Source: an uncultured beta proteobacterium | Lineage (GTDB): Bacteria; Pseudomonadota; Gammaproteobacteria; Burkholderiales; Rhodocyclaceae | DNA length: 9,342 bases | Direction of reading: 5' to 3' | Assembly (NCBI GenBank): GCA_903916205.1 | Contig: CAIWVX010000144.1 | Span: forward strand, 1-9,342 | Shown here: positions 1 through 5,869 of the stretch, piece after piece | Layout of the letters: each line of letters starts with the position of its first letter | Numbering within the stretch: the stretch's first letter is position 1 | Notes under the pieces: model-generated | The model's input: the letters and a program-made list of their open reading frames with translations, nothing else | Told to the model about the DNA's origin: nothing | The model's database searches: none | Program-made: the position numbers and the translations under genes

Positions 1-2714
1 CGTGGCTCAAGTGTTTGAGTGTAATTGCGTCCAAACCAGCGGTCATTGCGTTCAAAAGTCATCCCGGCATCCACGCTGGCAATTGGCAGCGTCGAACTGA
101 TCGAATTCGGCTCCCCGGCGGCCAACCCGGTCAATGCATATTGACGCATATTCAGGCCGAGTTTCGGTGTCACGTACCAGCCTGGGGTCACATAGGGCAA
201 GGCCACCTGGGGATAAAGCACGAGGCGCTTGGCATCGGGGTCAGCTGTCGCTACGCCATTGATGATCTGTTTTGGCTTCACGAACACCGTGTACTGCCCC
301 ATGAAGCTGCTATCCGTTCGATACAAATCAGGCTTACGGGCATTGACGGTAATTTGCGGCAACATGCGGTACTGTTCGCCCACCGGATTTTTCGGATCAG
401 GCTGCAAGGTTTGGTAAGTCTGAAAGTTGGCCGTCGCATTCCACCACCCCCCGCCGCCATAACTCAACATCCCTTGCTGTATCAGCTGGGTCTGAGAGGT
501 CGTCAGCACATTGCTGGATAGATCGGTGAAATACGTGTCATCCGAGACTTTGTTGTAGTTGACCGCCCCTGCAAATCCGTGGCCCAGAGGCTGGCTATGC
601 ATTAGAGACAGGCCATAACGATTTTCGCCATTTTTCAACTTGTCGCCCGGCAACACTTCGAGACGCGCTTCGCCACGATACGTGCTATCCATATAACGAA
701 ATTCGGAACTCATCATTAAACCGCGCGCGGAGATTAAGCGCGGGGTGATCGTTGCATCACGGTTCGGCGCAATGTTCCAGTAGTAAGGCAGACGGAGCCA
801 GAGTCCGCTGTCACTGCTCGAACCATATGAAGGGGCGAGAAACCCCGATTTTCGTGCGCTGTTAAGCGAAAACGACAGCCAAGGCGAATGAAGAATCGGA
901 ACATCTTTGAAATAAATCGTTCCATCCTTGGCATCGCCGACCTCTCTGTCGTAATCCAGCTTGAGGTCTCCGGCCTTGGCGTACCAGTCATTATTATCCA
1001 CAGCGCAGGTGGTATAGGTTCCGTTAGTCAGCCGAATTTGGTTTTCACCCTCGAAATCAATGCGATCTGCCTGGCCTCGAGCATCGGCATTGGTATGTGC
1101 TATTGCCCCCGAATTAAGGGTTGCCGGGTTAATTAAAAGCGGGGCGGCAAATCCCGTCGTGAAGCTTTCCAATTTTTCTTGATCTAAGAAACGTTCGGCA
1201 AACTCTCGGTCTGTTTCCGCTTGACTTCCCAACGTGGCCTGACGTCGCAGAAGATAGGTCGGCTGCTCGAAAAACCCCAGATGGTCTTTTAATTTAAGCC
1301 GCAGTTTGGGCCCAGAGAAAACATCTTCTCCTTGTTGCAAACGAACATGGCCTTCGGCCTCAATCTCATCGTCAATCGGCCAGTAAGTCATTTGATCCGC
1401 GTTGACCACGGTACCGATCTTGCGCAATTCGGCATCGCCTTCGGCCGAAAATTCACGATCAATATTGCCCCCCATACGATAGGCATTAAAGAACACGGGG
1501 CGCGGCACTACACTTTCTTTGGCTTGTGGCCGCATCACCTTGGATGAACGCAAGGGCAATGAAGGCATCGCGTCGAGCACTTCTTCTTCATCACGGCGAA
1601 CGGTCGTGTCCATGTAAGGCGAGACCATTGATTGGGCCGCCGTCGTGTCTTGGCCCGTAGGGGTAAGGTTACGGCCTGTGCTGCCTGTGCCACCTGTGCC
1701 ACCTGTGCCACCTGTGCCACCTGTGCCTCCTTCCACCCCAAAATTAAGCGCTGGGCCATACGGTACATGCGGGCGAGAAAAAGGCCCATCCGCGCCAAAG
1801 GAGGTGCGTGAGCTTTCATTTTGCAGAGACGGTTCCATTTCTGCTTTAAACGGCGTACCGACAGGCTCGTTGTTTTTGCCCAGTTCCCACTTTGCCCATA
1901 TAAAGAAAATATTACCGAAGCCACGGCCACCGGGGATATAGACGCCTTCAAGGCTGAAATTTTTGTAAGCCGCCGAGGCCATCGGCAAGGCAATCGGGAA
2001 GGGCACGTAACCCAAAATATCGGTACGCGACATCAGGCCGGCGTTATACCCTAAGCCTAGGCGAACATCTTCTGCCGGTCGCCACAGAGCTTTCCATCCG
2101 TAGCCTGCAAAATACATCGGCATGTAGTGCGAATCTTGGAAAGCCAAGGCATAAACCCCTTCCCAATTGCCTTTTGCGTCGTAATGACCACGACCGACAC
2201 CAAAGCCTTTAGGTCTTTCCTGATAGGTGGCAATTTTTTCTGCCGTATATTTACTACGAAAGTGATAGGTTTCCAACGGCAGGAAAAACTCAAGCGAACC
2301 CTTGTCGTAAGCCTCAGCAACGGGAGCCCACAGGCGCTCATACCAGCTTTTAGCGGGTTTCTTGACCAACGGAACTAAGCCCATGCGCACCGGCTTGGCT
2401 GCGGGATATTTTTCTCTCATCAAACTCGGCAAAGCCGCATCAATAGGCGAAGTGGGTGAAGACGTCGAATGCACCGGAGTCACAGTCACCGGCGTTCCTT
2501 GAATTGTTGAAACCGGAGCCGTATCACTGGCCGTGAGCGCTTCAGCTGGGGCAGGTACGTTTTCTGACCGGATGGGCGGGGAAGCCAGCAACACAGGGTC
2601 GACACGCCATGATGAGGTTGACTGTGTCTGAGCCTGGAGGGCCGTTCCGCTAACTAAAACGCTAGCAAAGCAAATGAGTTGCGCGAGTGGTTTGCGCCGA
2701 AAAAGGAAATTCAT
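1..2714 (-). CDS. lptD: PagP-LptD fusion: lipid A palmitoyltransferase joined to LPS-assembly outer membrane protein (partial, C-terminus beyond window)
   Basis: The frame runs from ATG at 2714 to base 1 with no stop (904 codons). A signal peptide (about residues 1-28, basic n-region FRRK, cleavage near A25 or A28) is followed by a Ser/Thr/Pro-rich stretch (29-122). Residues 123-278 match a whole PagP: amphipathic start (SWYERLW), catalytic-type His151 (ETYHFRSKY), Asp194-Ser195 (AFQDSHY), AGYGW at 203-207, Arg230, and a C-terminal strand (GNIFFIWAKWEL) like the end of E. coli PagP. A linker (279-414) with five Gly-Gly-Thr units leads to the LptA-like LptD domain (about 415-600: AEGDAELRK, AEGHVRLQQG, TYTTC) and the LptD barrel (YYWNIAPNRDATITPR, then RNYTQTLEP at the edge). 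LptD, normally with LptE, moves LPS to the cell surface; PagP palmitoylates lipid A. The LptD part has no signal peptide of its own. No clear Shine-Dalgarno precedes the ATG. The domain calls are strong; the active fused state is inferred. Confidence 0.93.
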   Translation of the reverse strand, partial: MNFLFRRKPLAQLICFASVLVSGTALQAQTQSTSSWRVDPVLLASPPIRSENVPAPAEALTASDTAPVSTIQGTPVTVTPVHSTSSPTSPIDAALPSLMREKYPAAKPVRMGLVPLVKKPAKSWYERLWAPVAEAYDKGSLEFFLPLETYHFRSKYTAEKIATYQERPKGFGVGRGHYDAKGNWEGVYALAFQDSHYMPMYFAGYGWKALWRPAEDVRLGLGYNAGLMSRTDILGYVPFPIALPMASAAYKNFSLEGVYIPGGRGFGNIFFIWAKWELGKNNEPVGTPFKAEMEPSLQNESSRTSFGADGPFSRPHVPYGPALNFGVEGGTGGTGGTGGTGGTGSTGRNLTPTGQDTTAAQSMVSPYMDTTVRRDEEEVLDAMPSLPLRSSKVMRPQAKESVVPRPVFFNAYRMGGNIDREFSAEGDAELRKIGTVVNADQMTYWPIDDEIEAEGHVRLQQGEDVFSGPKLRLKLKDHLGFFEQPTYLLRRQATLGSQAETDREFAERFLDQEKLESFTTGFAAPLLINPATLNSGAIAHTNADARGQADRIDFEGENQIRLTNGTYTTCAVDNNDWYAKAGDLKLDYDREVGDAKDGTIYFKDVPILHSPWLSFSLNSARKSGFLAPSYGSSSDSGLWLRLPYYWNIAPNRDATITPRLISARGLMMSSEFRYMDSTYRGEARLEVLPGDKLKNGENRYGLSLMHSQPLGHGFAGAVNYNKVSDDTYFTDLSSNVLTTSQTQLIQQGMLSYGGGGWWNATANFQTYQTLQPDPKNPVGEQYRMLPQITVNARKPDLYRTDSSFMGQYTVFVKPKQIINGVATADPDAKRLVLYPQVALPYVTPGWYVTPKLGLNMRQYALTGLAAGEPNSISSTLPIASVDAGMTFERNDRWFGRNYTQTLEP
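1683..1730 (-). repeat. 9-base tandem repeat encoding a (Gly-Gly-Thr)5 linker
   Basis: On the plus strand the unit tgtgccacc occurs four times in a row from 1686 to 1721, followed by a diverged copy (tgtgcctcc, 1722-1730) and flanked at 1683 by gcc. On the coding strand this gives five Gly-Gly-Thr units (residues 329-343), followed by Gly-Ser-Thr-Gly. It lies between the PagP and LptD parts and reads as a flexible spacer. A gain or loss of one 9-base unit keeps the frame, so the length could vary between strains. Confidence 0.95.
1881..2348 (-). other. PagP domain within the fusion (residues 123-278)
   Basis: This stretch encodes about 156 residues, close to the length of mature E. coli PagP (161). 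PagP is an eight-stranded outer-membrane barrel that transfers palmitate from a phospholipid to lipid A. Aligned by eye to E. coli PagP (mature numbering), His33, Asp76 and Ser77 correspond to His151, Asp194 and Ser195. Gly88, the floor of the acyl-chain measuring pocket, corresponds to Gly206, and Arg114 to Arg230. Shared blocks include YQERP versus YNERP, KGNWEGVYALAFQDS versus KGNWHGLYAMAFKDS, and AGYGW. Because the catalytic residues and Gly206 are kept, I infer an active, palmitate-selective enzyme. Confidence 0.92.

Positions 2715-2829: not shown

Positions 2830-5869
<3,040 letters not shown>

What the first reader, a model, noticed from the sequence alone, without database searches (positions are those of the whole stretch)
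1..2714. PagP fused in frame to the N-terminus of LptD
A single stop-free frame joins a full-length PagP lipid A palmitoyltransferase to LptD, the outer-membrane LPS exporter. Only one signal peptide is present, before PagP. The 136-residue region between the domains has no hydrophobic leader, so the LptD part could not be exported as a separate protein. The two are separate proteins wherever I know them, and I recall no described fusion. It would place lipid A palmitoylation at the mouth of the LPS export channel.
Basis: partly seen in the sequence, partly recalled or inferred. Interest (0 to 1): 0.93.

Follow-up and report, generated by a model that had tools for sequence, protein, structure and literature searches.

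The report
LPS exporter LptD carrying PagP enzyme
In Propionivibrio, Rhodocyclus and a related lineage, the outer-membrane channel that places LPS on the cell surface (LptD) has a complete PagP domain, with PagP's key residues intact, in the same protein chain, which would likely couple LPS export to lipid A palmitoylation.

Summary
Window 3-2714 (minus strand) is one open frame: signal peptide, low-complexity extension, full PagP (PF07017, 163 bits), Gly/Thr-rich linker, then LptD, cut by the contig end. It is not an assembly error: the same architecture occurs in 10 of 28 genomes of the genus, 3 of 3 Rhodocyclus and 1 of 1 of a third genus, among them isolates such as P. dicarboxylicus DSM 5885 and R. 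purpureus DSM 168, and in 77 protein clusters. No second pagP or lptD was found in these 14 genomes. PagP is better described as inserted into a long N-terminal extension that unfused relatives also carry. Trees fit one gain and about four losses. The PagP fold and catalytic His/Asp-Ser are kept, under purifying selection like LptD's. I read it as a two-barrel outer-membrane protein that likely palmitoylates lipid A beside its exit; activity is untested. I found no description in the papers searched; one key multibarrel paper could not be read.

The parts
3..2714 (-). pagP-lptD fusion gene (904 codons, 3' end cut by the contig end)
   Evidence: ATG at 2714 matches the start of relatives
2628..2714 (-). 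signal peptide, residues 1-29 (MNFLFRRKPLAQLICFASVLVSGTALQAQ)
   Evidence: read; most hydrophobic part of the N-terminus; cleavage site judged by eye
2355..2627 (-). Pro/Ser/Thr-rich N-terminal extension with one copy of the RVDPxLL motif, residues 30-120
   Evidence: motif position
1884..2354 (-). PagP domain with its N-terminal amphipathic helix, residues 121-277 (Pfam core 132-275 = 1890-2321)
   Evidence: AlphaFold2; Foldseek 3gp6; aligned to E. coli PagP
2262..2264 (-). codon of PagP catalytic histidine (E. coli His33 equivalent), residue 151
   Evidence: invariant column H33; alignment; catalytic role recalled
2130..2135 (-). codons of PagP Asp-Ser pair (E. coli Asp76-Ser77 equivalents), residues 194-195
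   Evidence: invariant columns D76 S77; catalytic role recalled
1473..1883 (-). linker between PagP and LptD, residues 278-414, no hydrophobic leader
   Evidence: equivalent region predicted disordered in the R. purpureus model (residues 282-359, pLDDT < 50)
1675..1731 (-). 9-bp tandem repeat, 6.3 copies, encoding the Gly-Gly-Thr run of the linker
3..1472 (-). LptD: periplasmic jelly-roll part and the N-terminal part of the barrel, residues 415-904
   Evidence: remaining C-terminal piece on G000:C10

Best explanation
The window encodes a single protein in which a complete PagP domain lies inside the long N-terminal extension of LptD, the only lptD found in this genome, making a predicted two-barrel outer-membrane protein that likely palmitoylates lipid A next to the site where LPS leaves LptD. 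Shown: one frame, one leader, both domains full-length in relatives, conserved junction, PagP's catalytic residues kept, purifying selection, no other pagP or lptD found in the fused genomes. Predicted: PagP folds as its usual helix plus eight-strand barrel and LptD as jelly roll plus barrel, with a flexible periplasmic linker. Inferred: Sec exports one chain, BAM inserts both barrels (PagP termini are both periplasmic, recalled, so the topology fits), and the tether holds one PagP per LptD, so outer-leaflet phospholipids near the export site donate palmitate to newly arriving LPS. Evolution (inferred from trees): the domain was gained once in a common ancestor of Rhodocyclus, the g450 lineage and Propionivibrio and lost about four times, so it is useful but dispensable.
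Against: No biochemical or expression data exist. One genome, G010, has the leader in a different frame from PagP, the break lying at a 6-bp repeat upstream. Of 78 PagP-bearing clusters 58 pass a crude leader test and two more have an evident leader; 18 begin inside the extension or later (fragment, wrong start or frame break not resolved). PagP's C-terminal beta-signal is internal and its end position is Leu in 52, Phe in 14, Met in 6, Ile in 1 of 73 read, so BAM handling is uncertain. The residue at the floor of PagP's acyl pocket (recalled role) is Gly in 52 of 78 and otherwise varies, so the acyl chain may not be palmitate everywhere. In 16 of 26 LptD-bearing genomes of the genus no PagP was found (some are incomplete). 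Support for one PagP clade falls to 80/70 with 50 rows and a long-branch row breaks it (one clade not rejected, p 0.43). Mean model pLDDT is only 65 and says nothing on the relative position of the barrels. Proteolytic separation in the periplasm is not excluded.
Confidence: 0.68

Rival explanations
1. The chain is made as one precursor but is cut in the long linker after export, giving ordinary separate PagP and LptD; the fusion then only ensures 1:1 synthesis and shared export.
For: Linkers are long (60-166 residues in 69 measured by pattern), low in complexity, predicted disordered and evolve fast (dN/dS 0.27-0.55), so they would be protease-sensitive.
Against: By eye no conserved cleavage motif in the linkers; in many the stretch right after PagP (GKxGEAxGTPA) and, in Propionivibrio, RVPYGP and DEEEVPD are conserved instead.
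Confidence: 0.17
2. PagP has lost its enzymatic role and its barrel serves as an outer-membrane anchor or assembly aid that brings LptD to BAM or to the membrane.
For: PagP's barrel is first in the chain; the beta-signal end has changed and the acyl-pocket floor residue varies; the domain is missing in many relatives.
Against: Asp-Ser kept in 79 of 79 and His in 77 of 77 clusters after long divergence, and dN/dS is as low as LptD's; an anchor would not need them.
Confidence: 0.1
3. The fusion is an assembly or frame artefact of the metagenome bin.
For: The window genome is a 501-contig, 79% complete bin and the linker has a tandem repeat; G010 shows a frame break upstream of PagP.
Against: Same architecture in isolates (R. 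purpureus DSM 168, R. gracilis DSM 110, R. tenuis 2761, and P. dicarboxylicus DSM 5885, whose copy is cut at the leader end by its contig), in two 4-contig assemblies (G026, G027) and 77 clusters; stretches of the linker are conserved across genera.
Confidence: 0.02
4. On origin: the fused PagP arose by moving the local pagP from its purH-purD site about 10 kb away into lptD, rather than from another source.
For: pagP has purH and/or purD beside it in 20 of 26 standalone loci examined (18 with both, 2 with one at a contig end; some loci are the same genome fetched twice), and the site is empty (14-111 bp) in 12 of 12 measurable fused genomes; fused plus 12 PagPs of that kind as one clade is not rejected (AU p 0.23).
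Against: The best tree puts fused PagPs nearer Sulfuricella-type PagPs (95/72), which are not at purH-purD (L162, L165); fused plus G817 alone is rejected (p 1.3e-5); G817, inside the fused part of the LptD tree, keeps a standalone pagP at the old site; the site is also empty in 11 unfused genomes.
Confidence: 0.35

Closest known systems
PagP (lipid IV(A) / lipid A palmitoyltransferase), E. coli PagP/CrcA, PDB 3gp6, 1thq
   Same: Full domain with amphipathic N-terminal helix, eight strands, His and Asp-Ser; 34-42% identity in structural alignments to solved PagP.
   Different: Not a separate protein; C-terminus internal, followed by a linker and LptD; beta-signal end mostly Leu.
LptD, LPS-assembly protein (PDB 9kn3, 7omm)
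   Same: Jelly roll plus large barrel, one cysteine in each part, surA next in the gene order, LptE present in the genome.
   Different: Carries a second, enzymatic barrel in its N-terminal extension; two cysteines only in the LptD part of 13 of 13 fused rows not cut there.
Multibarrel outer-membrane proteins (Solan et al. 2021, seen only as cited in PMC8592465 and PMC11494523, passages)
   Same: Two beta-barrel domains predicted in one chain.
   Different: Here one partner is the LPS exporter and the other an LPS-modifying enzyme; whether that paper lists this pair I could not read.
PagP plus OMP_b-brl two-barrel proteins of another family of the order (L241-L243)
   Same: PagP followed in frame by a second outer-membrane barrel domain.
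   Different: Partner is PF13505, not LptD; PagP there is more divergent (95-111 bits).

Membership tests
PagP | PF07017 / NCBIfam PagP equivalog score over cut-off | tested here: met
   163 bits (cut-off 24) and 172.9 bits (cut-off 155)
PagP | catalytic His and Asp-Ser (E. coli His33, Asp76, Ser77; role recalled) | tested here: met
   window and relatives:
PagP | N-terminal amphipathic helix plus eight-strand barrel | tested here: met
   predicted; matches 3gp6
PagP | separate outer-membrane protein ending in its own beta-signal | tested here: not met
   C-terminus is internal; so it is a PagP domain, not a PagP protein
PagP | palmitoyl transfer to lipid A | not testable with these tools
   no assay
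LptD | LptD barrel family (PF04453) over cut-off | tested here: met
   151.6 bits in the truncated window protein, 343 bits in R. purpureus (cut-off 22.4)
LptD | N-terminal jelly roll and barrel fold | tested here: met
LptD | disulfide linking jelly roll to barrel | tested here: inconclusive
   one cysteine in each part in full-length fused relatives; bond itself untested; need for one such bond from PMC8983717, passages
LptD | partner LptE in the genome | tested here: met
   14 of 14 fused genomes
Multibarrel outer-membrane proteins | two closed barrels in one chain, both membrane-inserted | tested here: inconclusive
   two barrels predicted; insertion not tested

The most novel reading that the evidence does not exclude
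LptD with a built-in lipid A palmitoyltransferase: a single chain with two outer-membrane barrels in which LPS is acylated as it emerges from the export gate, the first LPS export machine fused to an LPS-modifying enzyme, and a natural test of how BAM folds two barrels, one with an internal beta-signal, from one polypeptide.
Probability: 0.6. Interest if true: 0.82.

Novelty: new variant of a known kind. Interest (0 to 1): 0.7.

Why it matters
LptD is the last step of LPS export and PagP one of the best studied lipid A enzymes; in E. coli PagP uses phospholipids that have reached the outer leaflet (PMC7950410, passages). A natural covalent link suggests that acylation can be tied to export in space and in number. 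It makes three questions testable in cultured environmental isolates: where PagP meets its substrates, whether LPS is acylated at the exit gate, and how the assembly machine handles two barrels in one chain. Where a source names these proteins, it calls them either PagP or LptD/LPS-assembly protein, so half the protein goes unnoticed in each case.

Tried and rejected
Assembly artefact: rejected on isolates and many independent contigs. Second signal peptide in the linker: none seen by a hydrophobicity scan of 11 fused proteins. Second pagP or lptD copy in fused genomes: none found; G000 (lptD) and G001 (pagP) show two pieces because contigs end inside the gene. Donor of the fused PagP: left open. 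One search's third test (fused plus Rhodocyclaceae purH-purD rows) was badly posed because it left out G572, which nests among those rows; redone with G572, where it is not rejected. In one search a long-branch row (G863) fell among the fused PagPs; one clade was still not rejected (p 0.43), and with that row left out support is 100/99; with 50 rows it is 80/70. LptD rows: 59 domains were extracted, 43 used and 32 (left out there: G005, G017, G020 and most outgroups, to allow a careful search). In one search the list is filled by LptD and PagP chains and general barrels; nothing is concluded from what is missing. Papers, seen as listings unless passages are cited: PagP+LptD+fusion gave 5 papers, none on such a fusion by title and abstract start; Propionivibrio+PagP 0; multibarrel terms and PagP+LptD terms showed no PagP-LptD protein; Rhodocyclus lipid A searches gave one unrelated paper and the genus genome paper, whose passages mention LPS sugars and neither gene. 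One search listed PagP papers, of which I read passages of two. Solan et al. 2021 is not held, so 'not described' is limited to what was searched.
Full report
Observation. The window is all of contig C144 of a 2.25 Mb, 501-contig genome, 79% complete. The minus-strand frame 2714-3 has no stop, starts with ATG at 2714 and runs off the contig. Pfam places PagP at residues 132-275 (163 bits) and LptD at 697-904 (151.6 bits, first 207 of 384 positions), and NCBIfam gives the PagP equivalog above its cut-off (172.9 against 155). The rest of LptD, ending in a stop and followed by a SurA-like start (by eye), begins contig C10. A 9-bp tandem repeat (1675-1731) makes the Gly-Gly-Thr run of the linker. 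In the window the leader peaks at 1.80 on the Kyte-Doolittle scale and the linker at 0.40; in ten other fused proteins the linker reaches at most 0.55-1.52 and the leader 1.83-2.31.

Spread. In the 28 held genomes of the genus PF07017 is found in 10, and each match lies in an LptD frame or a contig-cut piece of one. LptD is found in 26 of the 28, one copy each apart from the split copy of the window genome. In the family sample PagP is in 45 of 297 genomes; long fused frames appear also in a second genus (3 of 3 genomes held) and a third (1 of 1); scripts confirm LptD in the same frame, and each of these four has one LptD. In wider samples 15 of 369 class genomes and 58 of 399 order genomes have PagP, and only the window genome has it in a frame over 540 codons. 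The protein search with the PagP part of the window gave 57 clusters, 56 with both Pfam families; a profile search, which scored only the best 7989 candidates, added 21 more with both. Sources name them sometimes PagP and sometimes LptD.

Quality of the frames. Of the 14 fused genomes, ten hold the whole frame from leader to stop (G006, G007, G012, G013, G026, G027, G813, G842, G889, G922); three are cut by contig ends (G000, G001, G002); in G010 the leader is in another frame, with the break at a 6-bp repeat upstream of PagP. Of 78 PagP-bearing clusters 58 pass a crude leader test, and two more (P0042, P0067) have an evident leader; the other 18 begin later, and I did not resolve why.

Anatomy. 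The 14 unfused LptDs of the genus with a visible N-terminus carry a long low-complexity extension with one or two copies of a motif like PLRVDPALLGLPP; in 11 of them a start could be chosen by rule and the extension to the LptD domain is 158-305 residues. In the fused proteins PagP sits after the motif copies; a GKxGEAxGTPA-like stretch follows in most, in Propionivibrio also RVPYGP and DEEEVPD, then LptD. Hence PagP was inserted in an existing extension. G004 has RQRRPYG and RDEEEVPD but no PagP, which reads as a remnant. The linker is 60-166 residues in 69 proteins measured by pattern.

Selection and residues. The Asp-Ser pair is kept in 79 of 79 PagP-bearing clusters and the histidine in 77 of 77 that reach it; 78 and 75 of these by pattern, the rest read. 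In eight pairs dN/dS (a simple counting method; dS is over 1 in several pairs) is 0.03-0.30 for PagP, 0.08-0.30 for LptD and 0.27-0.55 for the linker. The residue equivalent to E. coli Gly88, the floor of the acyl pocket (recalled), is Gly in 52 of 78, otherwise Ser, Gln, Glu, Thr, Ala or Ile, so acyl length may differ. PagP's last strand ends in AKWELGK in 51 of 73 read; of 12 standalone PagPs printed, six end in Phe and six run on a few residues further.

History. In the LptD trees the fused rows are scattered (5 changes; AU test of one clade p 5.7e-6), while their PagPs form one clade (100/99 with 38 rows; 80/70 with 50 rows; broken by one long branch) in the same order: Rhodocyclus, g450, Propionivibrio. 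One gain and four losses is the simplest reading; repeated transfer of lptD is not excluded. In relatives pagP stands beside purH and/or purD in 20 of 26 standalone loci examined, some of them the same genome fetched twice (purH and purD named by family search); the gap holding it is 569-781 bp in the seven genomes measured. G904, G895 and the Sulfuricella loci have it elsewhere. In 12 of 12 measurable fused genomes, the window's included, the purH-purD gap is 14-111 bp without pagP; it is also empty (33-352 bp) in 11 unfused genomes. In the loci mapped, that site is about 10 kb from lptD, across amgK, murU, pepP and others; in G828 it is far away. So either the local gene moved, or a new copy made it redundant; trees do not decide.

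Mechanism. PagP moves palmitate from phospholipid to lipid A in the outer leaflet (PMC2887491, passages). In E. coli loss of BepA, proposed to lower LptD assembly, raises surface phospholipid, which PagP uses (PMC7950410, passages). LptD releases LPS by lateral opening between strands 1 and 26 (PMC8983717, passages). A tethered PagP would thus likely meet both fresh lipid A and stray phospholipid at the gate. This is inference; no call shows activity, membrane insertion or packing.

Comparison. Two-barrel single chains are a proposed class (Solan et al. 2021, as cited in PMC8592465 and PMC11494523, passages); I could not read that paper. In the listings of my searches I saw no PagP-LptD fusion. 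I therefore call it a new variant of a known kind.

Noticed in passing
L241:1332-2948, L242:1163-2620, L243:254-1495: In another family of the order (code f201) PagP is followed in frame by an OMP_b-brl barrel domain (PF13505), a different two-barrel PagP protein; 7 genomes of that family have PagP in 389-539 codon frames, 3 of them examined.
   Followed up: partly
window 2355-2627; L012-L019, L049-L063, L185: The low-complexity N-terminal extension of LptD in Propionivibrio and kin carries a conserved short motif like PLRVDPALLGLPP, once or twice, with or without PagP; possibly a binding site for an envelope partner.
   Followed up: no
L135-L146, L160-L173, L204-L208: pagP stands beside purH and/or purD in 20 of 26 standalone loci, about 10 kb from lptD in several genomes; the site is empty in the fused genomes measured.
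   Followed up: yes
L019 (reverse strand), around 3832-4605: In G010 the leader frame and the PagP-LptD frame differ, the break lying at a run of 6-bp repeats read as Gly-Ser in one frame and Gln-Ala in the other; sequencing error or a real switch unknown.
   Followed up: partly
L017, L018 N-terminal extension; window 1675-1731: Extensions and linkers of fused LptDs hold short in-frame tandem repeats (Gln-Ala-Thr, Gln-Ala, Gly-Gly-Thr) that differ between genomes.
   Followed up: no
window 2830-4565: amgK and murU (cell-wall sugar recycling) lie divergent to lptD, an arrangement also seen in all seven loci mapped; ordinary.
   Followed up: no
   Followed up: no
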